A stretch of 64,000 nt of DNA, from contig VLTN01000039.1 of assembly GCA_008330645.1 (NCBI GenBank), positions 62,001-126,000 of the forward strand, in the 5' to 3' direction. Below the pieces are notes generated by a model. The model did not search any database. It saw only the letters and a list, made by a program, of their open reading frames with translations, and was not told where the DNA came from. A program made the translations under genes and the position numbers. Shown here piece by piece: positions 2,059-63,995 of the stretch; the stretch's first letter is position 1, and each line of letters starts with the position of its first letter. Origin of the DNA: Cafeteria roenbergensis (Eukaryota; Sar; Bigyra; Bicosoecida; Cafeteriaceae).

Positions 2059-5000
2059 ATGGCAGCCAGCGCCGCTGCGCGCCGAACCCCGGTCGCCAGG
2101 ATCGACGGGGCGCGCCGCATTCTCGACAGCTACGTGGACGATGAGGCCATCTCCAGTCTGAGCACGGCGGACTTCGTCAACCAGCTGAAGGACGGGCGCT
2201 ACTTGCTGCTGTGCGCGCGCGCGATCGCCACGAGCCGGGGGGCCAAGCTTTCGATGGACCTTGTCAACCCCGGAGGAATGGGGGCGCACCACCGAAACCT
2301 GGAGATGTGAGGCGGGCCCACCGTTTGCGCAGGCTGGGGCGTCGGGGAGGGGGTTGGGAGAGCCAACGGGGGTGGGGGAGGGCTCGAATGCGAGGGACCG
2401 ACTCAGCCCGCGCGCCCGCGGTTCCTGCGCCCGAGCGCGAGGCGCCCTTCTCGGGGGCTGACCCCAATGTCGATCGGGCGGATGGCAGCGAGTGCGGGCT
2501 GGCGCGGGGCCGGCTGTTCGGGGGTTGCGGGCTGCAACGGCCGTAGGCACACTTGGCGCCCGTTTCCCGCGGGTTGGGCACTTGTCAGACCCGCCGCGCC
2601 CGCACAGGCGCCACGCCAGCTGCGCCTCCCGCCGCCCCGACCCCGCGAAAACGCACCTCCGCAGCTATGCGGACATCTGCGTCGAGCACCTGAACTTGCC
2701 GGATAGCGCCGTCATCAACTACACGGACATGGAGAGCATGACCAAGGTTGCTGCCGGCCTCACTGCGCTGCGCGACGCCGTGCCCGACGTCAAGGAAGAG
2801 AGCAGCAGCGGCCTGTTCCCTGCTCCCCACAGCCCAGTTTCGATCCCGTCGCGCATGCGCCGCGCCGTGTCCGAGTCCGAGGGCCCGCCGCGTGTGAGCT
2901 CCCCGCTGCGCGCGTCAGGCTGGGCGTCCAGCCCCGCCAAGATTGTCGGAGCCGTCTCCGCGAGCGTTGCCAACATGGTGAGCCCCCCCCCCCCATGCTG
3001 CATAGTTTGCTGGCCCGGGCACGTGTGTGGCATTGCCGGAGCGGGAATCGGCGGGGCTTGCGGTCGGACTGCCGCCAGACTTGGCGGGGCCGGGCTGGTG
3101 CGCGGCAGAATGCACCGCTGCGGTCACCGGCATGCTGCGCCTCTTTTGCTGGGAGCCGTTCCGCCCCTGTCGCAGCTCAAGTCGCCGCGTAGCAGCAGCC
3201 TGCAGGAGCAGGCCTCGCTGCGGGCCCGTCTGACAAGCTCCGAGAATCGGATCGCGAGCCTGATGGAGCGCAGCGAGCGCCTGCGCAATGCAAGCACCGA
3301 GTCCGAGGCGCAGGTGCGCACGCTGATGCAGGAGAAGGAGACCCTCGAGGCCACGGTGGCGACGATGCAGGCCTCCATGCAGCAGCTGCGGGCGGAGACC
3401 GCGAGCGCGCGGGCCGACGCGTCGTCCCACCACGAAGAGCTGGCCAGGATGGAGGCGCGCACGGCGGAGGTGCAGCGCAAGGTCGACGAGCTCCAGGAGC
3501 GCATCGACGAGGCAGAGGACGAGGCGATGAAGTCCCGCGTCGAGGCGGCCAAGCAGGAGAAGCTCGCCTCCCAGGCGCGCGCAGACGCGGACGCCGAGGC
3601 CGCGCGCCGCGAGGAGCTGGAGCGCGAGGTGGCCTCCCGCACCGCTCAGATGCAGATCCTGGAGGAGACGCTCCAGTCGCAGGCCGAGCAGCAAAAGCTG
3701 GCCCAGGACGCTGCGGCGACGTCGCTCGCAGAGGTAACGGCCCGTGCCCGGACGCGCTCGGACCGAGCCAAGGCACTGGTTCGCCAGTGCGGCTCCGCCC
3801 ACTCGGCCATCAGGACGGCGGCAGAGGGCATGAAGTCTCTCTCCGCCGAGGTGCGGGCGCAGGTCGGCGCCGCCTCGGCCGACCTCACGCGCATGGGCAA
3901 GCAGCTGGTGGAGGCGGCCTCCCGCCTGCAGACCGGCGCCGCGGAGGCCAACCGGCGCTACATGCGCGAGACCAAGGAGCGCCGTCGGGCCTTCAACCTC
4001 CTCCAGGAAGTGCGCGGGAACATCCGCGTATTCGCTCGCGTCAGGCCCGTGCTGCCCAAGGAGGCGAAGCGAGGTCTGGAGCCCGTCGTGGAGGCGTCGA
4101 GCGATTTTGAGCTCGCCGTGGGTGGCGGCGACGACAGCGCTGCCGGCACAGACCGGGGACCGCGGTCGTTCGCCTTCGACCGGGTGTTCGGCGCCGAGTC
4201 GACCCAGACGGGCGTGTACGAGGAGATCGCCCCCGTGGTCATGTCGGCCATGGACGGCTTCCACGTCTGCATCTTCGCGTACGGCCAGACTGGCTCGGGC
4301 AAGACCCACACCATGCAGGGCTGCGACGGCCACCGGGGCGTCTACCACCGCGCCCTGGCCCAGATCTTCGAGGAGGCGGCCTCCAGGCGCGACAGCTCCG
4401 ACTACGCCATCAGCGTGAGCATGGTGGAGATCTACAACGAGACGGTCCGTGATCTCCTGGCCGGCGCAGAGTCCGCCTCCTCGTCCTCCTCGGCGGCTGC
4501 GGCGGCGGCCAGCAACACGCTGGACATCAAGCAGGGGGAGTCGGGCGTCTACATGCCCGGCGTGACCGTTGAGCCAGTGAGCGACGCCGGAGCCATCCGC
4601 TCGCTCATGGCCCGCGGCGAGAAGAGTCGCTCGGTGGGCCGCACCGACGCCAACGAGCACTCCTCCCGGTCCCACAGCCTCCTCCTAATCGACGTCATGG
4701 GCACCTCGAGGGTCAACGGGGCCCGCACCTGCGGCCGCCTGGTCCTCGTCGACCTCGCCGGCTCCGAGCGCGTCAGCAAGAGCGGCGCCCAGGGCCAGCG
4801 CATGAAGGAGGCGCAGGCCATCAACAAGAGCCTCTCTGCCCTCGGTGACGTCATCGGGGCGCTCACTCACAAGTCGGCCCACGTGCCGTACCGCAACTCC
4901 AAGCTGACGTACCTGCTGCAGGACAGCCTGGGCGGCGACAACAAGGCCCTGATGATCGTGCAAGTCTCCCCCGTGGCGGAGAGCCGGTCCGAGACCGTTT

Positions 5001-8434: not shown

Positions 8435-8465
<31 letters not shown>

Positions 8466-11603: not shown

Positions 11604-12756
11604 ATGACCCTGCTGGACTCGGCCAAGACGCTCCTTTTCGGGGCGGAGCCGAGCGCCGAGGCTGCCGACCCGCGCCTGGAGGGCGTGGAAATCCCGAGCA
11701 TCGACCCGTACGACCACGCCGCCGTCAAGCGGACGCTGGATGACGGCATCGTACATGTGAGGCTTCGGGCAGCGAGGTTGGACGGGTGCCTCGCTGGAGG
11801 GATCGGTGGGGCCAGGCTGAGCGTCCCCAGCTGAAGACGCTGCTCAGTCCGCCGAGCTGTGCGCGAGCCTCGCAGATTCTGACCGAGGAGTTGGGAATGA
11901 AGGAAGATCTCACGGTCAGCAACACGCACCTTGGCATCATGGCCGCCGCGGTGGCCATCGGGCTGCTCGGGCAGTTCTGGCCCTGGGGCACGGACGAGGG
12001 CTGGCTCGGCGTGGCCATTTGCGTCGTGCTCTACTTTGGGCTGTCGCACGCCTTGACGCTGTACCAGTCGCTGGTGGAGGGAGACTGCATCTTCACGTCG
12101 ATCCCGGTGAGGCTGCGAGCGAGCGTATCGTGGCCAACTGCTGGCCGCGAGCATGGCCGAGCGAGCAGCCCTGAGCGGGCGCCGCCGCGCCCTCAGCCCG
12201 CCAGCCAGCCAGCCACGCAGCTCCGTGTCATGCCCCCCCCCCCCCCCCCCCCCCCACCCGAGCCCTTGGTCGCCCCGCCCCGCTGTTGAGCTTCGTTGCA
12301 CAGGACAAGGCCGCGGGGGAGCTGACGCTGCGAGTGCGCACTGGCATGGCCAAGCACGAGAGTCGCTTCGTGATGCTTCTCGAGAAGCCGGGGCTGCCCC
12401 GCGCGCAGCAGCCAGCGGCGCCAAAGTCCGTCGTGGCCGCCCTTGTGCAGCCTCTGTTCGGGGAGGTCGGCCTCGCTTCCATTGCGGCCTCCGGCACGGC
12501 CCCGCCCGCCTGCGCAGGCGGCGCCACAAACTTCGTCATGGCCCAGCACGACTACGGACGGTACTTCACCAAGGAGGGATACCTCGTGCGGTCCCTGCTG
12601 CGGGCCGACCTCGTGAAGCTTCTGGACAAGGCGGCGTGGCTCCCGGCGGAGATGAGGGCTCGGCAGCAGCAGGCCGCCCGTCACATCCAGCGCTTCTTCG
12701 TCAAGGCCAAGGCGCAGGGCAGGCTCGACGCCGACGTCCCGCAGGCCGACCAGTGA
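11604..12756 (+). CDS. SPCS2: Signal peptidase complex subunit 2
   Basis: Exons 11604-11756, 11876-12106 and 12304-12756 give 278 residues, slightly longer than animal SPCS2 (about 226). All junctions are phase 0. Exon 2 carries the family core: SNTHLGIMAAAVAIGLLGQF, the WPWG turn, then a second hydrophobic span with YFGLSHALTLYQ, i.e. two closely spaced membrane helices at about 63-115 with both ends cytosolic. SPCS2 is the non-catalytic ER membrane subunit that couples signal peptidase to the Sec61 translocon; signal peptidase removes signal peptides from secretory proteins. The C-terminal part (LRVRTGMAKHESRFVMLLE ... HDYGRYFTKEGYL) matches the cytosolic domain, which in this family ends in a basic tail. 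Intron 2 contains a 23-base C run and ends CACAG, the only acceptor in the window without GCAG. Confidence 0.9.
12233..12255 (+). repeat. C23 homopolymer in SPCS2 intron 2
   Basis: 23 consecutive C on the sense strand, ending 48 nt before the acceptor AG. It is the longest homopolymer in the window. Confidence 0.95.
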
Positions 12757-13117: not shown

Positions 13118-15571
13118 TCACGAGTCTGCCTCCTTGCCCTCCCCGGCATCCTCCAGGGCAGCGGCCGCCGCGATGACCAGAGGGTACTGCTTCAACAGCT
13201 CTGCCATGAGGTCCCTGAACACGTGCAGCATGCTGAGGGTGGCGTGTGCAGCTGGCTCAACGCCCCGCAAGTAGGCGGTCCATTCTGCCTCCCCCCTGCC
13301 AGGCAGCTCCGCGGCCGCCGTGGCCGCCGCCAGCGCCGGCGCCTCCACCGCCTTGTGGAGGAGGTCCACGAGGCGCTCGAGCTCGCGCCTGCGAAACAGG
13401 ACCTCTGGGACGAAGCGCTCAAAGGCCGGCTGAGAGTCGTGGTTGAAGCACCACACGTAGCATGCCTTGAGCGCCCGGTGGCTGGAGATGAGCGTGCGCA
13501 CCGCTGCGCGGGCCATAGCGGCCTCCCCTGGCAGTGCGGTGCCGCACGCCAGCAGCGTTGCAACTGCCGATGCAACGGCGGGGCGGTCGTCGCGGAGAGT
13601 GAGTTTCTGCGCGTGCGCATGGAACCGGTACTTGCTGACGTAGGGAATGAGCCTTGCGAGCTTCGCCTTGGTCTCCAGCGCCTTGCGCTCCTCCTCCTCC
13701 ACGCTGGGCGGCTTGGTCATCTTGCAGTTGTACCACTCTGTGCCGTGGGGGGCCCAGGGACCCATGCAGATCTGCGGCGGAAGCGCCACAGCAGAGGCGG
13801 CGAGAGGTGGGGGGTGACGACGCCTCGCGGCCAGGGACGGCCAGGGGGCAGCGTGGGCGGCGGGGGTGGTGGGCGAGGGAGGGCTAGTGGTGCGCGCGGG
13901 CGGGCGAGCGAGCGACTCACCCAGCAGAATTCATGGCCGCAGCCGGCGCCGCTGCCCTTGCCGCAAGTCATGTGCAGGCACCCTGCGACAGGTCCGCAGA
14001 CGCGGGGGGTGGGAGCAGGAGCGGGAGTCGGGCAGGCGGAGGCAGGCACGCCATTGGGGGACAGCGAGGGGGACTGGCGCGCGCGAGGCATCGCCGCAGG
14101 TCTGGCCAACTTCTGCGAAAGGCATTGTGCTGGCCTCGGGGGGGGGGGGGGGCGGAGGCATCCCCGCCACCCACGCCCAGGCCGGCGAGCCATGCGGCGC
14201 CCTCCGGGCTCACCGTCGTTCTTCTCAATCGGCCGCTTGCAGGACGGGCAGGGCTTGGCGTTGGCGAGGATCCACTGCATATCCACGGCGTCCTCGTCGG
14301 CATGCAGCGCCCACTTGCCAGACTCGGCGCAGGTCGAGGGCCCGTGCCACTCCCTGGCACAGGAGAAGCACCAGTGGTGGCCGCACTCGCACGCGATCTC
14401 GCGAACCGTCTGCTTGTGGTACGTGGCGGTGCGGCTGCAGCCGGGGGCCGGGCAGCTGCGCACCGACTGCCAGGTGTCCTGGAGGTGCTGCGTGGCGCGC
14501 TCCGAGACCATGGCGGCCTGCTCCGCCGTGCAGTACGTGCTCCACATCCGCCACCTGATCCGCTCCGGGCACGCGGGGCAGCGTGCGTTCACGACCTCGC
14601 CGGGTCCCAGTGCGAGCGTGGCCGCCAGGTGGGAGCGCCAGCACGCGGCGCACAGCCAGTCGCCGCAAGGAAGGGCGTCCGCCTCCTTGTAGGGCACGCA
14701 GTCGAAGCAGGCCGGGCAGTCGAACTCGTCCGTGTCCGCGGCGCCGTCGGGAGGAGAGGGCCGCCTCAGCCCCGAGCCGTGCTGCCGCGAGTACTCGTCG
14801 TCCTCCAGGGTCAGCCCCCCCCGCTTGAGGCAGCCTGCCTCGTCCACGGCCAGCTCCCTTGCGAGCGCCTCGGCGTCGTAGCCGAAGCTCGGCAGCAGCA
14901 GGCGGCAGTCCTCCGCGGGAAGCAGGGTTGCGTCCTCAACCTCCTTGGCAAGCTGCGGGAGCCGACGAGCAGCTCGGGAGCAGAGGCGAGGCGGAAGGGC
15001 GGGAGCAGGGTGTGGGAGGGCGGGGGGCTCAAGACAGCAGTGGGGCTGACTGGGGGCGCGCCGTGGCGCCCGCGGAGGTGTGCGGGAGCGCGGGGGGCTC
15101 GGAGCGGGCGCGCACTTGCGCCCGCTGCGGCGGGCGCTCGCCTCACCTCATCCAGCTTGGAGCCGACAGCGTCGTCGTCGTCAATGGTGTATGACGCAGC
15201 CGCAGCAAGAGTGGGGACCCCGGGAGCCGAGGGCGACGGCCCGATAGCCCGGGGCGCCGCAAGGTCGTGGTCGGCGCTGGCTGCGAACGGGCGCACCACG
15301 TGGGGAAAAGGACGCGGGGGTGGCGCCCCGCCTCAGCCAGGCTCGCCCGGCGCAGCGCACGCCCAAAGGCGCCTTGGGCTGGGAGGCACAGGCCGTCGCC
15401 GGCCGCCGCGGCTCCGGGAAATCCACGGCTCGGCATCGGAAAACGCGGTCGGTGCCAGGCCTCACCGCCGTCGTTGGCCTCGCCCCACTCGTCTTCCTCG
15501 AACTGCATGCTCCCGAGACTGCCCAGGTCGTCGTCCAAGGCAGCCACTGGGTCGCTCAGCGTGGCAGCCAT
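13118..15571 (-). CDS. ARI: Ariadne-type RBR E3 ubiquitin ligase
   Basis: Five exons on the minus strand: 15571-15466, 15280-15147, 14952-14214, 13982-13921 and 13771-13118, encoding 564 residues (human ARIH1 has 557). Splicing joins an acidic N-terminus (FEEDEWGEA, YTIDDDD) to RING1 (CPACFDCVPYKEADALPCGD), IBR (SCPAPGC ... ACECGHHWCFSC) and RING2 ([21 protein letters not shown]). The catalytic Cys that receives ubiquitin from the E2 is predicted at residue 328, in DGCLHMTC, one codon after a splice junction. After GHEFCW the Ariadne signature HGTEWYNC and the helical Ariadne domain follow, which in this family autoinhibits the ligase until it binds a neddylated cullin-RING ligase. All four junctions restore frame, and the domain order is complete. 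The start has a good context and a family-like acidic N-terminus. It is head-to-head with the phosphatase gene. Confidence 0.92.
14138..14152 (-). repeat. C15 homopolymer in RBR ligase intron 3
   Basis: 15 consecutive G on the plus strand, therefore C15 in the transcript, about 155 nt before the acceptor of exon 4. Confidence 0.95.
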
Positions 15572-17255: not shown

Positions 17256-17761
17256 GTCATCAGTTTGTTTTTTCGGGGGGGGGGGGCGCCCTCCTCCCCT
17301 GAGACTGTGCGTCGTAGTGGATTGCACAGCACGCCTGGGGCACTGCCTGCGGGGCTGCCCCTTCAGCTGCTTTTTGGTAGTCAGCGGCGCGCTCACGCCG
17401 CCTGGGGAGCTTGCCAGGCCGCGACTTGTGTCATAGAGGGACTGGCATTTCCGATTCGGTCGCCATTCGGCAGCCCGCTTCAAGGCCACTTGTTTTTTGC
17501 AAATTCTCGGGGCGATGTGGTCCTTGCTTGTTCAGATTTTATTCTCGCGCGACGGCCTTGTTGTGTGTTGCGCCCAGGACGGTTCCTTTCATGAATGCAG
17601 CGCAGTGAAGCGGTGGACGCGTGCGGGGGACACACTGCCGCACAGCCCCGACGCAGCGGGAGAGCGACCGCTCGGCTCGAGTGGTGTTTCATCAGTTGTC
17701 GAGCCAACGATGCACCCGATCAAAACGAACGACCCTTCACGCAAAAAGAGGCGCGTGTCAC
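17256..17761. other. Tail-to-tail gap after the DUSP gene
   Basis: 506 bp of convergent 3' flank with clearly more A/T than the surrounding genes, including TTTGTTTTTTC followed by 12 G at 17275-17286. No gene seen. Confidence 0.5.
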
Positions 17762-31041: not shown

Positions 31042-34000
31042 TCACTGCTGCGGCGACGCGGACCACGCCGCCAGAACCCCGCACCGAGTGCCGCACACAA
31101 CCGACGAGCCATCGTTGAGCACCACGAGCGCCGTGATCACGCCGTGCTGATCAGGCCCGAGCCCCTTGAGCATCCACGGGGCGCGCTCCAGCACCGGCGG
31201 CGAGAGCGCCGGCGCCTGGGCGGCCCGCTTTGGCGACCCGACGGCTCGTCTCGCAGACATTGCCATCGCCCCGTCCCCCTGGTCGTCCCCACCGTCGCTC
31301 TCCTCGCCTTCCAAGAGGTCGTCGAGAACGGCATCCAGGTCCTCGCTGCTGGCGCCGTCGCTCTCGTCGTCGGCTGCACCAGTCGCCGCAGCGTCAGCAG
31401 CAGCGGCAGACGCAGCGGCGGCATCGCCACCACGCCCGCGCATGCCTGCGGACCGCCTGCGCCCACTCATGCCGTCGCCGTCCTCGCTCCTGGCCGCGGC
31501 TCGCCCCCGCGTCATCGACGTCCTCGGGCCGCTCCCGCCGGGGCCGCTGCCTCCCGGCGTTGACCAGCCCTGCTCTGCGCTGCTCATGGGGACGGCGGCA
31601 GGCTTCGAGCCCGGCGGGAACGCAGTGTCTCGCCGCACTTCCAGCGCACCCGCTGCCAGCACAGGGAGCCCTGACGACGCTGCCGTGGCCCCGGAGTCGC
31701 CGACGGAGCTTGTGCGGCGGCGCGCAGTCTCCAGCTCTGCCGCAGCGACGTCCCACACGCGCAGAGCCCCGTGCGATCCCGCCGTGACCGCCCAGCGACT
31801 CCCCCCCGCAAAGGCTGCTGCGTGGAGCACCTCCCCCGCCGCAACCGCGGCCAGCAGGTCGCCTGCCCCGTTCGCGACGACGACCCTGCCGCTGGCCAGT
31901 GCGACCACCACGCGCTCTGCCGCGCGCTGCGAGACCGACGCCTTGGCTGGCAGCGAGGCCGCTGCCCCGCTCGCAGGCGCCCACGCCAGCCCTGCCACCC
32001 CAGCCGTGAACCGGGGCCCCCCTCCCAGCGGCTCGCCAGCCGGGCACTTGAGCATGTCGTTCACCACCGCGGGCCGGGAGCCCGCCGGCCCGTCGCCCAA
32101 CGCGTACCACACCAGCACGCCCTCGGCGTCGCCGCTGATCATCGCGCCTCCTCCCGGCCGCAGCGCCACGGCCGTCGCAGGGGCCCGGTGCTCCCGAAAC
32201 ACGGCGGCTTCCGACTCGCCCCGGGCCATGCGGATGGCGTCCTCCGCGGCGGCGTGCGCCGCTTGACCGGCCCGCGGCCCCCAGCACACTCTGACTGTGC
32301 GGTCTGCTGACGCCGACGCCAGAACGGCAGAGCCCTCGGCGGAGCCCGCCCCGCACGCGAGCGAGAGCACAGCCGCCCCGTGAACGCGCTTCCCGCGCCC
32401 CACAATCGAGCCCGTGCGCGTGTCCACTGCGGCCAGCCCGCCCTCGGCGTCCGCCGCAAAGCAGCACCCGCCGTACGCAGGCAGAGCAGCCAAGCACGTT
32501 GGGAGCGCGCCGAACAGGCGCCGAGACAGCACCCGGGGCCGCAGTCCAGTCCCGCCGTCGCACCCGGGAGTGAGGGGCGGCGGGCCCGAACCGCCCGACG
32601 CAGCAGTGGCCCCGGCATCAGCCGTGACCCCCGCGCCATCCACTGACCCGTCCCCGCCGCTGTCCCCGTCGCCGCCGTCGTCAAGCTGGTCTCCCCCTTG
32701 GGACTTGGCCTCGTCGTCGCAGCTGCCGCCGCCGCCGGCGCAGGCGGCAGCGTCCTCCTCGGCGGCGGCGCTTTCGCCATCCCCTCCTGCTGCTGCCGTT
32801 GAAGACCGGCCCACGGGCAGAGCGCAGAGCGTGCGGTCGGAGGAGAGCGTCCACACTGTGTCTGCCGAGGGGCTGGCCGCCGCTGCGGTCACCTTGTCCG
32901 AGTGGGCAAGCACAAAGTCGCCGGACGGAAATTCGCCCGCGGTGTCCGGGCCCGCCACCGGGAGGCGGCGCGCTGACGGCGGCGACAAGAGCGGGGACCT
33001 TCCACCGCCGCTCGCGCTCATCGGGGTGCCGGGGGCTCCGGGCCCGGCAGCGCGGCCCAGGGCGCTTGCTGGGCGCTCGAGCTGCAGGGGGCGCCACCTC
33101 AGGGCGGGGCAGGTGGCCGGTGTTGGGGGCTCAGCGGCCTCCTGTTCCACGCTAGCCCAGGGCGACGAGGGACCGGACTCGGCGCCGGGGAACGGCGACG
33201 AGGAGCCCGATCCGCCGCCGGCAGCGACGCCGCCGGTCGCGATGCGAGCCAGGCCCGCGCGCCCTCCTGCAGCCGTGCCGCTGAGGCCGGCCAGGGGAGC
33301 AGCGCTGGTCGCCGCAGCCGCGGCGCCGAGCCCGGGCGCCCCGCCGTCCCCCACTTCGGCCTCGCGGTGAGACTCGTCAATGAGCGCCATGGGGCTGCGC
33401 GGCAGCTTGGGCCCAGTGCGAGTCGGGTGCGGCCGCTGGAAGAGCTGGCGAGGGGTCTGCCCGAACTCGGCGATCTGCGCGCGCAAGCTGCGGAGGCGCT
33501 GCTGGTCGGTGATGGCGTCCATGTCCACAGTGCCCTCATACGTGAGGGGGTAAAAGAGGTTGTCGGCACTGCGGTCGGTCGGTCGGTCGAGGCAACGGGC
33601 GGGGGGTGGGTGTGGAGGTGGGGGGGGGGGACGAGGCAATGGGCGGTCGAGGCAATGTTTGCTGAACCCCTGGCCACCGCTGCGTGTCCGGTCTTCGCCC
33701 CGCGACAGCAAACCGCGGGCCAGGCCAGCGAGGGCCGGCCGGCCTGCTCGCGCTGGGCGGGAGGGCGGGCGTGCGAGCGGACGACACAGACGGCAGTCGC
33801 TCACGCTTCGGCCGCAGGGCCTCGCTGCTTGCAGCCGAAGACGAGGTCAATCCACGCGTGGATGTGCTGCGACACGTGGTCGCTCTCGAGGGCCTCGCGC
33901 ATCCGTCGCACGAAGTCCCGAGGGCTGCGGCACCAGGGGGGCAGCTCGACGTCCCCCACGCTCTCGCCTGCCTGAAGCAAGCCCAGGTCCAATCCCCGAG

Positions 34001-36166
34001 AGTTGCGGAGGAATCTGCCGTCGCCGCTGTAGAACTCCGGAGTTAGCTCCTTGAAGTCTGCGCTGTGGTTGAGGACGCCCTCCCAGGTGGCAGCAACGGA
34101 CAAGAACATGCGATCCGCGTTGTCGAACTTGCCAGACTGCAGCCGGATGTGGCCCTCGGGCAGCTCGCGGACCTGCGGGGCACGCAGGGAAAGCAGCCCC
34201 ACAGGCGTGGGTGTTGGGGGGGGGGGGGAAGCGGGAGGGGGGGGTTAGGGTTGTTGTGTGGCCTCTGCAGGCGGCGCGCAGCAGCCGGGCTGGGGGAGAT
34301 GCGGCGCACGCGCGCGAGGCTCAAACAGCAAGAACAGTCGAGGATTCGGCCGTCTGCCCCAGGGGCCGCGGGCCCGACCAAGCCACCGCCTCACCCTGAA
34401 GTAGAGAACGTACCCAGGCGTTGAGTAGTGCGTCCCGTAGAGGAAGGGCGCCTCCTCGCCCTCGCCGGGTGGCATGTGCTTCACGCGCTCGCGAAGTGAC
34501 GCGATGCGGGACGGGGAGAGGGCCCCGATGGGCTTGGACAGGTCCCTGAACGCGGCCGGGGCCTTCAGGTCCAGCTTTTCGGACGCGTAGTCGGCCAAGA
34601 CCCACGGAAACACAGGATACTGCCCCAGATCGAGGCGCGACCTTCCGGCTGCCGCGTTGAGAAAGGTCAGGTACTCGTGCGTGGAGATGCCCCCCTCTTG
34701 CCACTGGCGGCAGCGCGACACCACGGTCCGGGCCAGCGCCTCGTCGAGCCACCCCACCTGCCTGAGCGCCTGGGAGAGCAGCTGGCTCGGCACGTCGGCA
34801 AGCGAGGCGGCAGCGGCCGAGGCGGACTCTGCCGCTGATGCGCCCGCCGCAGCCCCTGCCGCGGCTGCTGCTTCTCCGGCCGCGGCGGCCGCGGCTCCCG
34901 TGGCGGCGTCGTGCGGCGCGCGCCTGCCAGCGCGAAACAGCAGGCTCTCTCCCATGAGCACGCCGTCGGGGACCCGCTGCGCGATCTCGGCAACGAGCTG
35001 CTCCCGCTCGCCGACGCTGCCGGCCTCCAGCAGCACGGCCACGGCAGACTGGCCGGACCCCGACACCAGCTCGAGCCCCGTCTCCCGCATGAAGCGGCGG
35101 CGGCGCCACACGCGGGTGAGGCGGCTGTAGGGGAAGGACGGCGGCGGGGCGGCGCCGGAGGGGTTGTCGACGCCGGACGGCTGGAGGTAGATGGCTGCGT
35201 CGCTGAGCATGAGGCGGCAGCGCCGCACGCTCGTGCCCTCCACCACCAGCACGAGCATCGGCTCAGTGAGCACCAGGCGCTCCGAGAAGCCGGAGAGCAG
35301 GGAGCGATCGAACTCGCCCCTCCAGCGCTCGGCCACAAGGGCCTGCGTGGCGGTGGCCACGGCATCGGGCGCAGCAGGGGAGCCGTCCGCCGCGTGCGCG
35401 GCGGAGAAGAGGCGCGCGAGGAGTGCGAGGGGCTCAGTCGCGCTGGCATGCGCAAGGCGCACCACAGCCGCGGTGCGGCCTCGGAGCGGCGCGGCAGGGG
35501 GCCACCACTGCTTGCTGGCGTCCAGGCCGGCGGACCGCAGCCACCCAGCGGCCATGCCCGTCTCGCGAAGCTCCTGCAACTTGGCTTTGACGGCCTTGCG
35601 GATGTCGCCCGACCCCCTGGCCACGCCCGCCGTTCCGGCTGCGCCGGGGGCGTCCACAATGACGTCGCGGTACGGACTGGGCCGTCCGTGAGCCATCATG
35701 TGCGTTACCATGGCGGCCTGCAGCACCAGCGCGCTCGCCCGGCCACCGGCCTCCGCGTGGTCCACCACCTCTCCGGCGTCCGTCAGTGCGGCCACTGGCC
35801 GCCTCATGTGCACGAAGGCCACCTTGAGGACGGGGTCTGCTAGCCGCTCGGGCTCAAAGAAGACCCCCGCAGTGGTCAGGTGCAGCTTGCCCGAGTTCCC
35901 GGAGCTGCGTGGGTGGCGAGCCGCGAACCAGTGTCCCTCGCGCGAGGCGTGAGCCGCGGGCCCTTTTCTGAGGCACAGCCGCGTGCAAGCGCCCGCGCCG
36001 CGCCGTGGGCCACGCGCGCAGCCGGATCTCACCCCGACTTGAGGCCGTCCGGCACCGACTTGCCGGGGACGGTCTGCCATTCCGCCTGCAGCTCGCCGAG
36101 GTGGTGCTCGCCCTCGTCAAGCAAGTCCAGGGAGAACCGGGACGCCTTGCCCCCGCCAGAGTACAT
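31042..36166 (-). CDS. NSMAF: NSMAF/FAN-like GRAM/PH-BEACH-WD40 protein
   Basis: Four exons: 36166-36033, 35904-34395, 34172-33805 and 33568-31042, encoding 1512 residues (human NSMAF 917). Exon 1 (SRFSLDLLDEGEHHLGELQA) and exon 2 (SGKLHLTTAGVFFEPERL) match the N-terminal GRAM-like part of NSMAF. The BEACH domain runs from about 455 (EYLTFLNAAAGRSRLDLGQY, PVFPWVLADY) across exons 2-4 (YGTHYSTPGYVLYFR; TWEGVLNHSADFKELTPEFY; SHIHAWIDLVFG-type block; FYPLTYEGTVDMDAI) and ends with FGQTPRQLFQRPHPTR. The C-terminal 600 residues form WD40 repeats, diluted by Gly/Ala/Asp-rich loops. NSMAF couples TNF receptor to neutral sphingomyelinase in animals; in protists BEACH proteins of this class act in vesicle traffic. 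All exon phases are consistent. The start is the first Met of the conserved block. Confidence 0.88.
33620..33630 (-). repeat. C11 homopolymer in BEACH gene intron 3
   Basis: 11 G on the plus strand, C in the transcript, 51 nt before the acceptor of exon 4. Confidence 0.9.
34216..34228 (-). repeat. C13 homopolymer in BEACH gene intron 2
   Basis: 13 G on the plus strand, C in the transcript, 43 nt before the acceptor of exon 3, followed by a second run of 8 at 34237-34244. Confidence 0.9.
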
Positions 36167-45437: not shown

Positions 45438-45468
<31 letters not shown>

Positions 45469-52215: not shown

Positions 52216-53915
52216 ATGGACCTATCGGTCAAGCTGAGCCGGGTGGACCACACTTTCAGCGCCGGTGTGAGTCACGGTGTCCCAACGGGGCGCCTCCCGC
52301 CTCGCGCTCCAAGTGCCGATCCGCAAGCGAGCGCGCCGCTCCCCGCGCACACCTCCGCTCGCAGGAAAAATGCGCGGGCCGGATCATCGTGAAAACCAGG
52401 TCGCGGCTGGCGCACTCGGGGCTGATGCGTGAGCTTGCCGCTGGCACTAGTGGCCCCTTCATTCAGGAGCGCGGCTGCTCAGAACGTTGCCGTGCAGCCG
52501 CCCCCCCCCCCCCGCTTGGGCTTGATTAAGCGGCTGCGACGGACATTGTGTGCACCCTCGCAGTTGTGGCGCACGGAGAGGTCCAGCCCCAGCTCTCGGC
52601 GAGGAACGCGGGGATCTTTGGAGCCTCGCAGCTGAACCCGACCCCAATTCTGCACGTGAGTCGCCAGCCCGGAGGCAGCAACTCCAGGAGCTGGGGGCAC
52701 TCGTGCGAAGGGGGCGCCACGCGCCTCCCCATGCCTGCGCGCGCGATTTCAAACCCTGCTGCGTCCCCCGCGCGCCCCCTGTTCGTGTGTTCGGCGCTGC
52801 AGACTGAGCTGCCAATTCTGGACGCCGACGTGTTCGAGCCGGGCGAGTACGAGCTGCCGTTCGAGTTCCCGATCGAGCCCATTCCAGGCGAGACGCTGGC
52901 GGAGACCTACCACGGCGTGTACGTCAACGTGCAGTACACAGTCAGCGTGGAGCTCAAGCGCAGCGGGATGTTTGTGCGCAGCCTGGCTGCGCAGTGCCCT
53001 CTCGTCGTGCACACGCCGGTGAGCCCTGGCGCGAGCGCCCGGCCGGTTGGGTGGCACGCTGCCTCTGTGCGGCGGCAGCGGCTCCTGCTGTTGCCGCTCC
53101 TGCTGCTCGGCATCGTCGAGATCCCCCCGTCAACCCTCTCGATCCGGGGCGACAAGTGGTTCGGCAACGCCTTGCAGAATTCCGCCGCCTCCGCCCCCCT
53201 GAGCAGCGCCCCCGCCCGAACTTGGCCCGATTCTCGGCATACCCCGTTGCCTCCGTCGCAGACTGAGGCCAAGCCTGACCCCGAACCCAACGACTTCGAA
53301 ATCCTTCCGGAGTCTCTCAAGAACGTCCGGGCCGAGCGCCTCTCCGCCATTCCGCCCTTCCGCGTGACTGGCCGATTGGAGCAGACAAACGCGTCTCTCA
53401 CAACGCCCTTCGTCGGACACGTGAGGCCGCAGGCGCTTGCACGCCCTGGAGCTCTCCTCAGGAGCCGGTTTCGGGCCGGCCAGAGTGTGCAAAACTGCTC
53501 GAACTGCCTCGCCCCCAAGCGATCTCGATCGCCCCGTGGCCCCCGCGCCTCGACTTCCCGACTTCCCCCCTGCCGCCCCCGCCGCCTCGTCCTGGCTTGC
53601 ACGCCGCAGATCACTGTTGAGGAGTCGACGGAGCGCATCCGGTCGCTGGAGCTGCAGCTTGTGCGCGTGGAGACGGTTCGTAACGAGGGCCGTGAGGCGC
53701 GCGAACGGACGGAGATCCAGAACCTCCAGGTCGGCGAGGGCGACGTCGCCAGGGGCATGCCTGTCCCGCTGTACGCGGTGCTGCCCCGGCTCTTCACTGC
53801 GCCCACCGTGCACCGCTCGCTGTTCAGCATCGAGTTTGAGGTCAACGTCATCGTGCGGTTCGAGCGCCACTACTTGAGCACGCTGAACATCCCCATCACC
53901 CTCTACCGGGGCTGA
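52216..53915 (+). CDS. VPS26C: VPS26C (DSCR3) retriever complex subunit
   Basis: Six exons: 52216-52266, 52365-52428, 52564-52655, 52803-53018, 53262-53420 and 53610-53915, encoding 295 residues (human VPS26C 297). The most intron-rich gene here. The spliced protein reads MDLSVKLSRVDHTFSAG, then RIIVKTRSRLAHSG, then GEVQPQLSARNAGIFGA, then YELPFEFPIEP, YHGVYVNVQYTVSVELKRSG, then ERIRSLELQLVRVETV and TEIQNLQVGEGDVARGMPVP, ending NIPITLYRG. These follow the arrestin-fold family block by block. VPS26C is a subunit of Retriever (with VPS35L and VPS29), part of the Commander assembly that recycles membrane cargo from endosomes. All junction phases are consistent (0,1,0,0,0). Intron 2 contains 13 consecutive C. 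No unusual residues seen. Confidence 0.93.
52501..52513 (+). repeat. C13 homopolymer in VPS26C intron 2
   Basis: 13 consecutive C on the sense strand, ending 50 nt before the acceptor AG. Confidence 0.95.
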
Positions 53916-54131
53916 GGCGGCGGTAGCCCGTGTGCCCGTGCGATGCGTAGCGCCTGCTTGCATGTGGGGCTTGTGTTCGTGTGCGTGTAAGCGACCACGA
54001 CGGCTGGCCGGAGCGCTGTGTTCCTTGCACGGCCGCCCGCGCTCCCAGGCCCACTCACCCGCCAAGGCACAGACGCAACCAACCCTCAAGCTATAGTCGG
54101 ACCCGGCCCAAGGGCTGCCCCGGCAGCGCCA

Positions 54132-57100: not shown

Positions 57101-60084
57101 CCGATAGCCTGGAAGGATCGCGGACCCTTCCAGAAGCCACAACAGCCCGACGCAGCGCGGCTGACACGCCGTCACCAGCATCGCCGCCGCCGCCGCCGCC
57201 GCTGGCTTCCGTATGTGTCGCCGCCGCCGCCGCCCCCGCTGCTGCTGCTGCTGCTGCGCCGCGAATCGCCACGGCGGCCTGGGTGAGCGCCAGCGCGGCC
57301 GCCCACACGGCGTCGCCCCCGCGCCCGCCGCCCCCGCGCTCCGCGCTCTCCAGCAGCCCCTCGTCCGGGCGGAGCGCACCAGACGGCTCCGCCGCCGCGC
57401 CGGCCCGCACCCACTTCGCCAGCTCGTCAGAAGGGCCGTCCGCGTCGCCGCTGTTCGCAGCGCGCACTGCCGCCACAATGCGGTCGGCGGCCACTGGGTG
57501 CAGCGGCAGGCTCGCCATCACGGCCTCTGCAGCCGGCTCGCCTGCCGTCACGGCCGCCGTGCCGAACGTGACCGCGCCTTGCAGCAGCGCCCGGCTTCGA
57601 CCAACGGCTCCCAGAGGAAGCGCCCCGAGGGCTCTGCCTTGCACGCAGCACAGCGCCACGAAGTCATCGCACCACTTGATGCTCCACTGACCGGCAGAGC
57701 TGTCCACGTCCTTCGAGCCGCCGACGTCCGGAGAGCCGGTGACGCTGACCACCTCAAGCCCCGCCGCCTCCACCACCGTCGCAGCCAGGTCGGCCGCCAG
57801 CGCCGACGGAAGCCTGGGCAGGGCGGCTCCGCCTGCCGCCGCCTGCATCGCCCGCAGCGCCTCCGCCGCCGCTGCCTGGGCCTCCTCCACGGCCTCGTCC
57901 AGCGCCCGAGTCGCGTCTCTCGGCGCACCAGGGCCAGCCCCTGCCCCGGCGGCCGAGTCCTTGCTCGCGTCGCCTTCCCCAGCTGATCCGGCAGAGCCGG
58001 CAGAGCCCTTCTTCGGCGCGCCGCCGCGCCGTTCCCCTGCTGTCGCAGCCTCGTCCTGCTGCGTCTGCTGCGCCGCCCTCAGCTTGTCCGCTGCCCGGAT
58101 GACGTCATTCAGCGCCTCCTCGGCAGCGGAGGCTGCCACCTTTGCAGCGGAAGCCGCTGCCACGGCGGTTTCGCCTCTGCTTGCCCACGCGTCCGACTCC
58201 TCCGCCACGATGCCGGCAATAGCAGCCTGCAGCACCAGCGCCTGCCTCCGCACCCACGACGACCGGACCTCCACTGAGGCGGCGGAGTTGGCTCCCAGGA
58301 GCGCCGCGCGCATCGCTGCGCCGTCCTGCGCGGCCTGCTCCACCGGCTGGCCCTTGAGCGACACAGCATCGCTCACCGCAGCCGTCAGCGTTTCTCGGAG
58401 CACGACCTGCGTCTGCTTGCTCAGGCCCAGAACAGGTGCGGCTCTGCCCAGGAGAGCCATGTCCGGCTCTGCCAAACGACCGTCGCGGCCCAGCAGCCCA
58501 AGCACGAGCGACTCGAAGGCAGCGGTGCGGAGGGCACGCGTGCGGGCGCCGGCCGCGGCTTTGCCGGCCGCGCTCGATGCGGTGGGCGCCGGGGTGGGGC
58601 CTGCGGGCGATGCTGCCAACGCAGCTGCGCCGGGCGCCGCCGAGGCCGCAGCTGCGGCAGGGGCGGTGTTTTCGGCGTCGCTCTGCCGCCCCGGCTCTTG
58701 GCGGCGAAGCAGCGTGCCTACCAGGGCAGTGCAGGCCCTGTCGGTGCCAGTCAGCTCCCGCTGCTTGCTCCGCTGGCCGCGGGTGGCGGCTGGCTCTGCC
58801 AGGGATGGTTGCGCCCGCAGGTCGGGCTGGGTGAAGGCTTGCGACTCCCCGTAAGCTGCTGGCTGGTCGTCCCCAGCCGCCCAGGTGGCCGCGGCGCGGG
58901 CGTTTCGAGCCATTCGCTCTGCCCGGGAGAGCTCTGCCGCCCTGCCGTGGGGCGGCCCGTCCGCTGCCGGGTCGGGCTGAGGGTGGCCGGGCTCGGCGTC
59001 GTCGTCGGCGCGCTCGTGAAACTGCCTGGAGATGAGGCGTCGGGCGAGAAGCCACCGGAGCGCCGTTACGAGGAAGTGCTCTGCCGCTGAGGCAGGGTTG
59101 AAGGCCCGTGCCGACGCCACCGCCTCCTCGGCGGTGCGAGTGGCCTCCCTCGCAGCCGTCGCCTGCCAGTGCGCCGCTGAGTGCAGCGAGACGGACACGT
59201 CTGTGAGGCGCGCCGAGTCGATTCCCGCCCAGCCCTCGGCTGTCAGCTGCTCGTCGGCCTCCACGGCGGCTAGCACGCGTCGCTGGTTGTCAACCACCGA
59301 TCGCATTTTGCGCTCTGCGGCGTCGGCGAGGCGGCGCGCGGCGGCCACGCGGTCCGCTGCCCGGCGGCGCTCCCGCTCGGCGGCGGGGGCGAGACGGGCC
59401 AGCTGGGCTTCGGCGGCGTCGACGTCGGCGGCGGCGCGGGCGTGCTCCGCCTGGGCGTCGACGAGGAGCGCCTCCACGCGGCGCCGGTCCTGGGACGCCC
59501 GGGCGTCGCGCCGCTGCGGGGGCGCGGAGCACGGCACGGCAGAGCACGGCAGGCTCAGTGGGGTGGGGCGGGGTGAGGTGGGGCGGGGGGGGGGGGGGCA
59601 GTCGGGGGCGAACGGGCGCCGGCCGTGCCTGCTCGCCCGGGGCAGGTCAGGCGAAAGGGAACGACGGCAAGGGGCAAGGTGGGGTGTGGCAACGAACGGT
59701 TCTCACCTCCAGGTCGGCGCGCTTCGTGCGAATGCCTTCCGTCACCGCTGCCACTCGCTTCAGCACGTCGTCCCTCAGAAACTGCGCGTAGTCCTCACGC
59801 ACGCTGGCCTCGGCGCGACAGCCGTCAGCAAACGAGGAGAGAGCCGCTGCGGCTTCAGTGTCCGCCGTGGGGTCGCCTGCGCGCATCAGGTGGGCTTGCG
59901 CAGCCTGCGCCTTGTCGTCGCTGTCCGCCAGCCTGCGCAGCTCCTTTGCAAAAGCGGCCTCCGCCGCCGCCCTGGCCGTCAGCAAGCGGTCCATTCTCTC
60001 CAGGGTGTCCTGCCCGGCCGAGGCGCGCGCGGCCAGCAGGCCCTGGCGGTTGGTGAGCCGGGGGTCTCGCTTGCCTGTCGCCAT
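54132..60084 (-). CDS. Very large F-BAR-domain protein
   Basis: Two exons, 60084-59707 and 59513-54132, give 1919 residues. Exon 1 (MATGKRDPRLTNRQGLLAAR, then DRLLTARAAAEAAFAKELRR and ASVREDYAQFLRDDVLKRVA) has the FCH/F-BAR start: a helix with AxxEAxFAKELRRLA and then a coiled coil that continues in exon 2 (SQDRRRVEALLVDAQAEHAR). F-BAR domains dimerise and bend membranes during endocytosis and cytokinesis. The next 1600 residues are Ala/Gly/Ser-rich with helical islands (RWLLARRLISRQFHERADDD; FVSLRGLLFDTLYNP) and no domain I can name, and no SH3 or RhoGAP is visible. The C-terminus has an acidic Glu/Asp tract and ends LVAASMQHRPAKPT. The 5.4 kb exon 2 is exceptionally rich in the GGCAGAGCC word. 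It could be two merged functions, but there is no break in frame. Confidence 0.75.
59585..59598 (-). repeat. C14 homopolymer in the F-BAR gene intron
   Basis: 14 G on the plus strand, C in the transcript, 71 nt before the acceptor of exon 2. Confidence 0.95.
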
Positions 60085-60359
60085 TGCTTCCGCGGTTGCC
60101 CCGAGGGTCTCCGGGCTCTAGCCAATGGAACTGGCACAGAGCGGCTGGCAGCGGAGCCTTCGCTCGCCCTCTGTGCTGTGCTGCTCCTGGGGGCGCCCTG
60201 CCGCGCACCTGCAGGGCGCGGGAGCTTGCCGCCCGCCGCCTTGCAGAGGCTCGCAAATATGTTGCAGTGGCGGTCAAAGACCTTGGCTGCCGAGAACGCC
60301 GGCCGGCGCCCCCAACACTCCACTCTCAGGGCTGGCCGGCCCAAGAGGACGAAGCAGCG
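60085..60359. promoter_or_regulatory. Divergent promoter region, F-BAR and VPS24 genes
   Basis: 275 bp between two opposed starts. It contains a CCAAT box at 60122 (plus orientation) and an A/T patch CAAATATG at 60257. No TATA box at a usual distance. Confidence 0.5.
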
Positions 60360-61385
60360 ATGTTCGGGTTCGGGCGATCCGCCGAACCGCCCAAGTCCGA
60401 CAAGGACCGAGTGAGCGGCTCGCGGAGAGGCGTCCAGACTGACCTGTTTGCTCTCGTGCGCTGTCCCAGCGCAGCCAGTGCTGGCTCGCGACGCCGCATG
60501 GAGCCCCGCCCCTGCCCCGTCTGTGCAGGTTAAGGAAATCAGGAAGCAGCTGCGCCAGAGCAAGCGCCAGCTGGACAGCGACATTCGCGGTGAGAGCGTC
60601 TCGGAACGCGCCGAGAACTGCCTCCCCTCCGGCTCCGCGCTGCCGCGTCTGCCAGGCGATCCGCCCCCCCCCCGATGGCTCCGGAGCCCTCCGCCTCCCC
60701 GGCCCGCCTCCCTCGCGCAGCGATCCAGCGGCAGGAGGCGGCGACGGCCAGGGACGTGAAGAAGCTGGCCAAGGCCGGCAACGTTGCGGAGGCGCGCACG
60801 CTGGCCAAGGCCATCGTGCAGGCCCGCACGCAGGTGACCCGCATCTCGGTGCAGAAGGCCCGCATCGCGGACGTGGACATGCAGATCGCCAACATGGCCT
60901 CCATGGCCCGCGTGTCGGGCGCGTTCGAGAAGAGCACGCAGGTGATGAAGAGCATGAACAAGCTGGTCAAGGCGCCCGAGCTCGCTGGAGCCATGCGCGA
61001 GATGCAGGCCGAGATGGCCAAGATGGGCATCGTGGAGGAGATCATGGAGGAGACCTTCGACGAGATGGACGACGACAGCGTGGAGGAGGCCGCGGAGGAG
61101 GAGGTCGAGAAGATCATGTTCGACCTTACCAAAGATATCCGGGGGGTCCACATCCCCTCATCCCACGTGGCAGCAAAGGAGGCCGCGCCGGCAGCAGCTG
61201 CTCCGCGAGGCCGCGTTGCTGTAGGCGCGGGGGGGGTGACGCCTGCGGCCGCCAGCGGCCATGCTGCCGGCGGCGGCTCCGGCTCCGGGTCCGGGCCAGG
61301 CGGTGCTGGGGCCTCCGCCGGTCCCCCGCCCGGGGCGTCCGTGGCCGACGACCTCATGGCCCGCCTGGCTGCGCTGGACGGCTGA
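60360..61385 (+). CDS. VPS24: ESCRT-III subunit VPS24/CHMP3
   Basis: Three exons, 60360-60410, 60529-60589 and 60721-61385, encode 258 residues (human CHMP3 222). The spliced N-terminus MFGFGRSAEPPKSDKDR joins KEIRKQLRQSKRQLDSDIR and then IQRQEAATARDVKKLAKAGN, the basic helix 1-2 hairpin that binds membrane and filament partners. Helix 2-3 (AGNVAEARTLAKAIVQARTQ; KARIADVDMQIANMASMARV) and STQVMKSMNKLVKAPELAGA follow the CHMP3 pattern. The acidic helix MEETFDEMDDDSVEEAAEEE and then a Gly/Ala/Ser linker lead to a C-terminal MIM1-type motif, DDLMARLAALDG (pattern DxxLxxRLxxL), which binds the MIT domain of VPS4. ESCRT-III filaments cut membranes in multivesicular bodies, cytokinesis and repair. 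VPS2/CHMP2 is a less likely assignment. Confidence 0.88.
60664..60673 (+). repeat. C10 homopolymer in VPS24 intron 2
   Basis: 10 consecutive C on the sense strand, ending 47 nt before the acceptor AG. Confidence 0.9.
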
Positions 61386-61915
61386 CGTCTCCCGTGTGCG
61401 AGCCCTGCATCAGTCTATGCGTGCTTGATCGAGCGAGTGAGCGAGTGAGTGAGTGTGGCGCCTGCTTTGCGTCAAGCTCGCCATCGCTCAAGGCTCGCCC
61501 CACGCGCCTCGAAGTCGCTGCTGCTTCTGCCGCTTGCGCCGCTGCTGCTTGTGCTTCTGCTGCTTCTGCTGCTGCTGCTGGTGATATCGTTGCTGCTGCT
61601 GCTGCTGCTTGTGCTGACGACGCCTCGATTGCTGCTGCTGGTGAGATCGTTGCTGCTGCTGCTGCTGCTTGTGCTGACGACGCCTCGATTGCTGCTGCTG
61701 GTGATATCGTTGCTGCTGCTGCTGCTGCTGCTTGTGCTGACGACGCCTCGATTGCTGCTGCTGGTGATATCGTTGCTGCTGCTGCTGCTTGTGCTGACGA
61801 CGCCTCGATTGCTGCTGGTGGCACTGGCGCCAGTTCTGCTCGCCGGTGCGCATCTTGGGACGACCGCAGCGGCAGCATCGCGCGCGAGTCACTCGGGCGT
61901 CACGCTCCCGTCAGC
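61386..61915. other. Tail-to-tail gap between VPS24 and NPL4, carrying a minisatellite
   Basis: 530 bp between the two stop codons. Starts with a GAGTGAGC/GAGTGAGT-rich stretch (61430-61455) and then holds CTG-rich tandem repeats at 61571-61810 (listed separately). Open frames cross it on both strands because of the repeat; none is supported as a gene. Confidence 0.6.
61571..61810. repeat. CTG-rich minisatellite, four units of about 60 bp
   Basis: Four tandem copies at 61571-61630 (60 bp), 61631-61690 (60), 61691-61753 (63) and 61754-61810 (57), then a short partial copy. Each unit has a CTG-rich arm with GGTGATATCGTT, a run of six or seven CTG units, then TGTGCTGACGACGCC and TCGATT. Copy 2 has GAGATC where the others have GATATC. 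Copy lengths differ by whole CTG triplets. Confidence 0.95.
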
Positions 61916-63995
61916 TTAATCGGTCGCGACAGCGCGAATGAGCTCCTTGTGGCCCTCGTCAAGCGGCGCACGCGGGTCCAGCACGGCGTCCGCCACGGTG
62001 TCCATCATTCCCTGCAGGAAGGGCTGCTCGGCCAGGAAGAGGAGCAGCTCGAAGTCCCTCAGCGCCTCCTCCATGCCGTGGGGCGCGCTGTAGGCGGCGA
62101 GGTGCCTCGACAGGTCCCCGCCCCCCGGCGCCGGCTCTCCCGCCTCTGCCCTCCGCGACGCTCTCGGGAAGGCAGAGTGCAGGAAGTACGTGCTCTGCCC
62201 GATGGGGACGTGGGCCAGGACGAAGGAGACGTCGATGGCCGCGGCGGGCTTAGCCTCGACAATGCAGTGGAACGGGGCGTTGACGATGAGGGAGTGGGCA
62301 GCGTCCATGGCAGGGCCGGACGGCGCCTCCGCGCCCGCAGCTGCCCCGGCAGCGGCTGAGGCTGCGTCACTGGGGGCCCCGGCGCCAGAGGCGGCGCCGC
62401 CCCCGCCCGCAGCAGCCGCTGCTCCCGCGCCGTCGTCGCCGTCCTCCTCCTCCTCCTCCTCCTCCTCCTCCTTCCTCCCGGTGCCCCCCTCAGCGGCTGC
62501 CGCAGCAGCGCCGGTGCCGGGCGCTGCGGCAGAGCTCACTTTCCCCGACATGCTCCTTCCAACCCTGCCGGATATGCTCCTGCCAACCCCAGTGCCGGCG
62601 GGGGCAGCTGCTGCTGCTGCTGGCTCGGGCGGCGATGCCTCGGCGTCCGCAGCGCCCGCCGGCGCGGCCGGCAGCTCCTGCCCCGGCTTGGCTGCCGACA
62701 CGGCGCCCTTGTCCACCATCACGCAGCCCTGGTCCGAGACCTGGAAGGCTTCCGTGGAGACTTCGCCCGTCTCCGTCGCGGTGACCTTGACCGTCACGAA
62801 GGGCGACCCCGGCCCCGCCTCCGCCTGCGCGCGGGCAGCCATGACCACCTCCGGCGCGATCACGGTGAAGGCCCGGTCGGGGTCGTGGCGGGGCGGGTGG
62901 CAGTACAGCATGCCCACTCGCTCCATGCCCAGCAGCTGCGCCAGCGCGGAGACGGTCTCTGCGCGCGGGTCTTCAAGCAGTCTGCGCGGGCCAGAGGGGG
63001 GCTCGGGGCGGAGGGGGGGGGGAAGGGTCGCGCGGGGCGGGGCCGCGGCTCGGGCCTGGAGGCGAGCGCAGGAGGAGGAGGCGAGCGCAGGAGGAGGAGG
63101 CGCTCGCAGGAGGAGGAGGCGCTCGCAGCGGGCACAGGCGCCGATTGCCGCAGTTGCGGCGGCGGCCCGGCGGCGGCGGCCCTGCGGCGGCGGCCCTGCG
63201 GCGGCGGCCCTGCGGCGGCGGCCCTGCGGCGCCACGTCGCTCTTGCCCACGCTGCAATCCGCGGCAGATACCCGCATCGCCTCAAAGACGCCATCACCCT
63301 CCACGCCCAGCCTCCGCGGCATTTGCGAACAGCCAGCCGCGACGCCCGGATCAAGCTCACTCGCACGCATCCACAGAGGCCACTTGCGGGGGCTCGTACG
63401 CGGCCACGGCCACAGCCTCGCCCTCCTCCGTGAAGAAGCCGAGGAGCCACGCGACCCGCGTGGTCTGGAAGGCCTTGCCCTGGACGTAGCGCACAAAGGA
63501 CAGCATCATTTCCGTGTCCACGGAGACCTTCTTGCAGTGGGCTTCTGCCTGCTGCTTCACGGTAAACTCGTGGGCGCGAGTCAGGTCCATGAACTCGTTC
63601 CAGTTCCACGTGCGTTTGATGTCCCGCATCGCCTGCATCCCGGGCCGGAACGCGGCCTTGCCTGTGTCCGCCGCCTTGGAGCCCACAATCTCACCGCCGG
63701 CGATCACCACGCCGGCGCCCGGCGCTGCGGGTGCAGGTGCTGCGGCCTTGGCGGCCGTGCCGTCGTACCTGATGAACAGAATATCGCCGCGCCCGATCCC
63801 CAGGTCGCCGAGCACATCGCCGTCGGCAAGAGCGTCTCCCTTGGCATCCAGTGAGAGTGTCTGGGTGTCGGCTTCCACGCCCTTGAGGTCCTGCACCAGC
63901 GTCTTGACCTCGGCGATGGTCGTGGCCTCGCTCACCCCAGGCACCCGCCACATGCCGTCCTTGCCGCGCACGCGGATCAGGAAGGTGGCCGCCAT
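61916..63995 (-). CDS. NPL4: NPL4, cofactor of the CDC48/p97 ATPase
   Basis: Two exons, 63995-63361 and 62981-61916, encode 566 residues and stop at TAA. Residues 1-80 form the ubiquitin-like (UBX-like) domain that binds p97: MAATFLIRVRGKDGMWRVPG ... LGIGRGDILFIRYDG. A linker leads to the MPN-like NPL4 core: SFVRYVQGKAFQTTRVAWLL, VAAYEPPQ, then after splicing LLEDPRAETVSALAQLLGME, RVGMLYCHP, SPFVTVKVTATETGEVSTEA and FQVSDQGCVMVDKGAV. After a long Ala/Glu-rich insertion the C-terminal domain closes with FELLLFLAEQPFLQGMMDTV. With UFD1, NPL4 recruits ubiquitinated substrates to CDC48, for example in ER-associated degradation. The Cys-rich zinc finger seen in the animal and yeast proteins is absent, as in plant NPL4. 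Intron phase 2 restores frame. Confidence 0.9.
63013..63022 (-). repeat. C10 homopolymer in the NPL4 intron
   Basis: 10 G on the plus strand, C in the transcript, 31 nt before the acceptor of exon 2. Confidence 0.9.
63061..63129. repeat. 19-bp tandem repeat in the NPL4 intron
   Basis: About 3.5 copies of a 19-bp unit containing GGAGGAGGAGGCG followed by AGCGCA or CTCGCA; the GGAGGAGGAGGCG cores start near 63071, 63090 and 63109. Confidence 0.85.
63167..63233. repeat. 14-bp tandem repeat in the NPL4 intron
   Basis: Four to five copies of CCTGCGGCGGCGGC in tandem, the first copy variant (CCGG start) and the last cut short. Confidence 0.9.

What the first reader, a model, noticed from the sequence alone, without database searches (positions are those of the whole stretch)
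2983..63022. Poly-C runs in introns, always on the sense strand and usually 30-70 nt before the acceptor
Nine introns carry a run of 10-23 C in the transcript orientation: kinesin 2983-2994, SPCS2 12233-12255, RBR 14138-14152, BEACH 33620-33630 and 34216-34228, VPS26C 52501-52513, F-BAR 59585-59598, VPS24 60664-60673, NPL4 63013-63022. Four genes are plus, and the other four, with five introns, are minus strand, and in all nine the C is in the sense strand. Seven lie 31-71 nt upstream of the AG. No coding exon has a run of 10. This looks like a functional, displaced pyrimidine tract of pure C, perhaps read by a poly-C-binding splicing factor or forming an i-motif, instead of a U-rich tract next to the AG.
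Basis: seen in the sequence. Interest (0 to 1): 0.72.

Follow-up and report, generated by a model that had tools for sequence, protein, structure and literature searches.

The report
Sense-strand C runs in introns
In a very GC-rich eukaryote, long runs of C sit in introns on the RNA-like strand, more often toward the intron's end; this looks like a C-flavoured version of the usual pyrimidine-rich splice signal that has been stretched by copying slips, rather than a new splicing device.

Summary
The nine C runs exist and all nine lie sense-strand in introns. A tenth run (G12, 17275-17286), between convergent genes, was not listed. A strand-symmetric gene finder trained here, with C/G runs masked, placed 25 further runs of >=10 outside the window: 14 intron sense-C, 2 intron sense-G, 9 intergenic, 0 exon. 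The bias is real, but 'always' is too strong. Genome-wide, GTGAG lies 96-126 nt upstream of 165 C runs and 104 G runs, but 34-64 nt upstream of 96 and 106; far background is 70 and 62. The 31-71 nt band does not replicate outside the window (2 of 14, 3.2 expected); acceptor-half placement does (10 of 14). Short C runs share the strand bias and the acceptor skew, and the last ~65 nt of introns are C-rich, G-poor and only slightly T-enriched. Best reading: a C-biased polypyrimidine region whose C tracts grow by slippage where no reading frame forbids it. A dedicated poly-C splicing factor is possible (two triple-KH loci) but untested.

The parts
2978..3175 (+). kinesin intron; C12 at 2983-2994 directly after GTGAG, 181 nt before acceptor
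12107..12303 (+). SPCS2 (SPC25) intron; C23 at 12233-12255, 48 nt before acceptor
13983..14213 (-). RBR intron, boundary corrected by hand from the reading frame GCLHMTCGKG; run 14138-14152 (C15 in sense), 155 nt before acceptor
33569..33804 (-). BEACH-gene intron; run 33620-33630 (C11 in sense), 51 nt before acceptor
34173..34394 (-). BEACH-gene intron; run 34216-34228 (C13 in sense), 43 nt before acceptor; a second C8 at 34237-34244
52429..52563 (+). VPS26C intron, boundaries corrected by hand (gene finder missed short exons); C13 at 52501-52513, 50 nt before acceptor
59514..59706 (-). F-BAR-like gene intron; run 59585-59598 (C14 in sense), 71 nt before acceptor
   Evidence: FCH below cut-off
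60590..60720 (+). VPS24 (Snf7) intron; C10 at 60664-60673, 47 nt before acceptor
62959..63135 (-). NPL4 intron; run 63013-63022 (C10 in sense), 54 nt before the modelled acceptor or 31 before an upstream CGCAG; boundaries uncertain (the joined frame has one stop)
17275..17286 (.). tenth run, G12 on plus, intergenic between convergent genes (19 nt after the + gene, 475 nt from the - gene)

Best explanation
The runs are homopolymer microsatellites seeded in a C-biased polypyrimidine region. In this ~72% GC genome the 3' part of introns is rich in C, poor in G and only slightly enriched in T (shown). Short sense-strand C tracts are therefore commoner than G tracts and skewed toward the acceptor (shown). 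Once a tract reaches about 9 bases, replication slippage lengthens it to 10-30 (inferred from the long tail of run lengths). Frame constraint keeps such runs out of exons (near-absence shown, cause inferred). The strand bias thus comes from ordinary selection for pyrimidines before the acceptor (inferred). Length and purity are tolerated rather than required (inferred; 16 of 183 introns carry one).
For: Sense-C against sense-G in introns: 688:445 at length 3, 251:138 at 4, 103:39 at 5, 47:10 at 6, 7:3 at 7, 8:1 at 8, 2:2 at 9, 16:1 at >=10. C runs of 4-5 (n=245) and 6-9 (n=44) in introns of 80-400 nt are skewed to the acceptor (KS p 4e-6 and 3e-5); long runs do not differ in position from 4-5 nt runs (p 0.68). 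G runs of 4-7 lie toward the donor on average (0.45, 0.40, 0.32 of intron length), though none of these is significant. In 111 well-supported introns, -65 to -6 is about C 43, T 18, G 28 percent, against about C 39, T 15, G 34 at -150 to -71. G runs of 5-6 in introns are about as scarce relative to iid (0.51, 0.39) as runs in exons and intergenic DNA (0.35-0.79), while intron C runs of 5-6 are near expectation (0.86, 1.05), so the bias is C gain rather than mere G purge. Run counts fall 207, 47, 29, 7 at lengths 6-9, then flatten: 3, 3, 4, 3, 1, 3 at 10-15 and single runs at 18, 20, 23. Genome-wide, C exceeds G 96-126 nt after GTGAG (165:104) but not at 34-64 nt (96:106).
Against: Length-7 C runs in introns are below iid expectation (7 against 16.8), so the rise with length is not smooth. 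Sense-C runs >=10 in introns (16 in 41.3 kb) exceed the intergenic rate per orientation (3 in 46.9 kb-orientations; p 0.001), which seeds may not fully explain. Outside the window the acceptor skew of long runs is modest (KS p 0.04, n=14); in the 264 kb with corrected introns it is p 0.07, and long against 6-9 nt runs gives p 0.09. No strain or relative was available, so slippage rests on the length spectrum only.
Confidence: 0.62

Rival explanations
1. The C run is a functional cis-element bound by a PCBP/hnRNP K-like KH protein that helps recruit U2 snRNP at weak, U-poor acceptors, as alphaCP does at C-rich polypyrimidine tracts in mammals.
For: Sense and acceptor-half bias. No T5 in the last 60 nt of any of 183 predicted introns. 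Two loci with three KH_1 matches in one open frame, C67:40881-41693 and C9:407879-408649 (the third C9 match is partial). Mammalian precedent PMC4797308 (passages, including part of the abstract).
Against: Only 16 of 183 introns carry a run. Spacing is loose (2-181 nt) and the 31-71 band fails outside the window. One run abuts the donor (kinesin). KH genes are no specific evidence.
Confidence: 0.2
2. The bias arises from avoidance of G runs in the transcript (G-quadruplex or R-loop), leaving C runs by default.
For: Sense-G runs of >=10 are rare in introns (1 of 17 in the 264 kb; 2 of 16 outside the window).
Against: Intron G runs of 5-7 are about as scarce relative to iid (0.51, 0.39, 0.34) as runs in exons (0.23-0.48) and intergenic DNA (0.39-0.79), while C runs of 5-6 are raised. 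Genome-wide, G runs exceed far background after GTGAG both at 34-64 nt (106 against 62) and at 96-126 nt (104 against 62), although CTCAC enrichment may inflate this.
Confidence: 0.12
3. The runs are parts of a repeat family (introner-like element) inserted in one orientation.
For: All nine intron runs of the window are sense-C.
Against: All-against-all blastn of 183 introns (plus strand, dust on, E <= 1e-3) gave only two short matches, 17 and 24 nt.
Confidence: 0.03

Closest known systems
C-rich polypyrimidine tracts read by alphaCP/PCBP (mammals; PMC4797308)
   Same: C-rich tract on the sense strand upstream of the acceptor
   Different: here pure C of 10-30, in under a tenth of predicted introns, loosely spaced; no protein binding shown
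Strand-asymmetric polypyrimidine tract of ordinary introns (PMC10946897, passages seen)
   Same: 3' intron end shows pyrimidine excess and strand asymmetry, attributed there to splicing-coupled selection
   Different: C carries most of the excess in this ~72% GC genome
Mononucleotide microsatellites (own knowledge)
   Same: excess of long runs with a long length tail; essentially absent from exons
   Different: poly-C, with transcription-strand bias

Membership tests
polypyrimidine tract of spliceosomal introns | pyrimidine excess on the sense strand upstream of the acceptor AG | tested here: met
polypyrimidine tract of spliceosomal introns | U-rich, close to the AG (U2AF65 type) | tested here: not met
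   T about 18% at -65 to -6 in 111 introns; no T5 in the last 60 nt of 183 introns
polypyrimidine tract of spliceosomal introns | needed for splicing | not testable with these tools
   no RNA data
PCBP-dependent C-rich tract | C-rich motif upstream of the exon | tested here: met
PCBP-dependent C-rich tract | bound and enhanced by a triple-KH poly-C-binding protein | not testable with these tools
   triple-KH loci exist; binding unknown
mononucleotide microsatellite | excess of long runs over Markov expectation with a heavy length tail | tested here: met
   20 seen, 0.75 to 3.5 expected in 264 kb
mononucleotide microsatellite | length polymorphism between strains | not testable with these tools
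   no second strain held
introner element | sequence similarity among introns | tested here: not met
   183 introns of the 264-kb sample only

The most novel reading that the evidence does not exclude
In this lineage poly-C has replaced poly-U as a working splice-enhancer tract, placed before a CGCAG-type acceptor and read by a dedicated triple-KH protein, so that C-run length tunes intron retention.
Probability: 0.12. Interest if true: 0.75.

Novelty: new variant of a known kind. Interest (0 to 1): 0.36.

Why it matters
It shows how the polypyrimidine signal behaves at ~72% GC: C carries most of the pyrimidine excess, T tracts of five are missing near the acceptor, and the acceptor itself is extended (CGCAG). 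If C-run length affects splicing, these slippage-prone tracts would be fast-evolving switches of intron retention.

Tried and rejected
Repeat-family (introner) origin: rejected by all-against-all blastn of 183 introns. Pure G-avoidance: not favoured by short-run counts. A sharp 31-71 nt spacing: not reproduced outside the window. YGCAG as a strand oracle proved too common (about 5 per kb in exons on either strand, hence about 16% per 31 nt by my arithmetic); GTGAG was better (57% of predicted donors, 0.4 per kb in sense exon). GTGAG counts upstream of G runs may overstate sense-G introns, because CTCAC is itself more frequent at intron 3' ends (1.17 per kb, 8 hits, against 0.54 mid-intron). 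One intron sense-G call (C3:29223) is doubtful: raw coding scores favour the other strand; the other (L022) was not re-examined. One intron sense-C call (L052, a 43-nt intron) is doubtful, and two of the nine outside intergenic runs (L051, L053) lie in loci with one tiny gene call or none. No clear branch-point motif was found. Rfam at gathering thresholds: no match in the window. Ten paper searches, of which I saw titles and abstract starts, listed no paper that I recognised as describing long sense-strand poly-C in introns; searches returned none. The organism was not identified; GC and genome size are near those of the haptophyte Diacronema lutheri (73.25% GC, 43.5 Mb; passages of PMC8379373), but no test was made.

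Full report
OBSERVATION. The window is G000:C39:62001-126000 of a 36.3 Mb, 167-contig genome, ~72.5% GC. The nine runs are real. To place them I wrote a strand-symmetric HMM gene finder with C/G runs >=8 masked, seeded it with three Pfam-supported frames, and self-trained it on the window plus four 50-kb stretches chosen by place beforehand (C1-C4:100001-150000), 264 kb in all. It converged on donors mostly GTGAG (57%) and acceptors with C 74, G 88, C 92 percent before the AG; it genes, 183 introns and about 75% coding sequence. It has no RNA support and misses short exons: two of the nine window introns (RBR, VPS26C) were corrected by hand, and NPL4 boundaries stay uncertain. All nine runs fall in introns as sense-C. 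Of 20 runs >=10 in the 264 kb, 16 are intron sense-C, 1 intron sense-G, 3 intergenic and 0 exonic. Classes were identical on the reverse complement (20 of 20 at each of three penalty settings); the settings gave intron C:G of 16:2, 16:1 and 15:1, the last with one run called exonic. Raw coding scores without splice sites gave 17 sense-C and 3 sense-G, the three being the intergenic runs. The p-value for 16:1 includes the window that suggested the idea, so the outside data carry the weight.

OUTSIDE THE WINDOW. In one search, 25 runs outside the window were classified: 10 in the four stretches and 15 in eleven C1 loci that were fetched because they hold a run of >=14 (not every listed C1 run was fetched). 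Result: 14 intron sense-C, 2 intron sense-G, 9 intergenic, 0 exonic (two-sided p for 14:2 is 0.004). Distances to the acceptor are 2, 11, 18, 22, 23, 30, 39, 68, 82, 83, 85, 91, 112 and 112. Ten of 14 lie in the 3' half (KS against uniform p 0.04), but only 2 of 14 are at 31-71, where 3.2 are expected if uniform. The distance of 2 (L052, a 43-nt intron) is doubtful. In the 264 kb with the two hand-corrected introns, 9 of 16 are at 31-71 against 3.9 expected (p 0.006), but seven of those nine come from the window itself. In that call the VPS26C intron was taken one base too long (distance 51 instead of 50).

WHOLE GENOME. There are 1963 runs >=10. GTGAG lies 96-126 nt upstream of 165 C runs and 104 G runs; at 34-64 nt, 96 and 106; at 406-436 nt, 70 and 62, which I take as background. 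C exceeds G in the acceptor-ward bin (165 against 104, p 0.0002) and not near the donor (p 0.53); position by orientation p 0.004. G runs also exceed their background in both bins (p 0.001 and 0.0009), so sense-G introns may exist in number, unless CTCAC enrichment explains it. The tool's own control, the pattern read backwards, gave 57 and 67 at 96-126 nt, 63 and 65 at 34-64 nt, and 55 and 49 far away (same calls). YGCAG 41-71 nt downstream follows 404 C runs and 356 G runs (p 0.09), against 321 at 206-236 nt from C runs (p 0.002); backwards controls 153, 175 and 197. These are pattern counts without annotation. The bias is therefore real but not universal, and weaker than the 264-kb sample suggests.

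WHAT IT IS. Introns as a whole are asymmetric: sense-C against sense-G is 1.5 at length 3, 4.7 at 6 and 16:1 at >=10, with 7:3 at 7, 8:1 at 8 and 2:2 at 9. Short C runs share the acceptor skew, and the last ~65 nt are C-rich, G-poor and slightly T-enriched (111 introns). This is a polypyrimidine region in which C carries most of the excess. The length spectrum has a long flat tail from about 10, as expected of slippage. I conclude that seeds come from the C-rich tract, length from slippage, and near-absence in exons from frame constraint; only the first is shown directly. Intergenic runs >=8 in the sample are mostly in convergent gaps, 7 of 8.

KNOWN RELATIVES. Mammalian alphaCP/PCBP enhances splicing through C-rich polypyrimidine tracts (PMC4797308, passages), so a working poly-C tract has precedent. 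The genome has two triple-KH loci and a many-KH open frame at C5:78930-83228 (that they are PCBP-like and vigilin-like is my reading). Strand asymmetry of the tract under splicing selection is described in PMC10946897 (passages). In the passages I saw, neither describes long pure C runs. No expression, strain or relative data were available.

Noticed in passing
   Followed up: partly
264-kb sample, intergenic gaps: Seven of 8 intergenic C/G runs >=8 lie in convergent (3'-3') gaps, although these are 9.1 of 23.2 kb.
   Followed up: partly
G000:C6:582507-584455 (-): A GTGAG...G-run pattern recurs four times with a period near 630 bases, suggesting a tandem repeat.
   Followed up: no
G000:C67:40881-41693 and C9:407879-408649: Two open frames with three KH_1 matches each (one of the C9 matches partial), candidate poly-C-binding proteins.
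   Followed up: no
L055:596-625: A C30 run in a divergent intergenic gap, the longest among the runs classified here.
   Followed up: no
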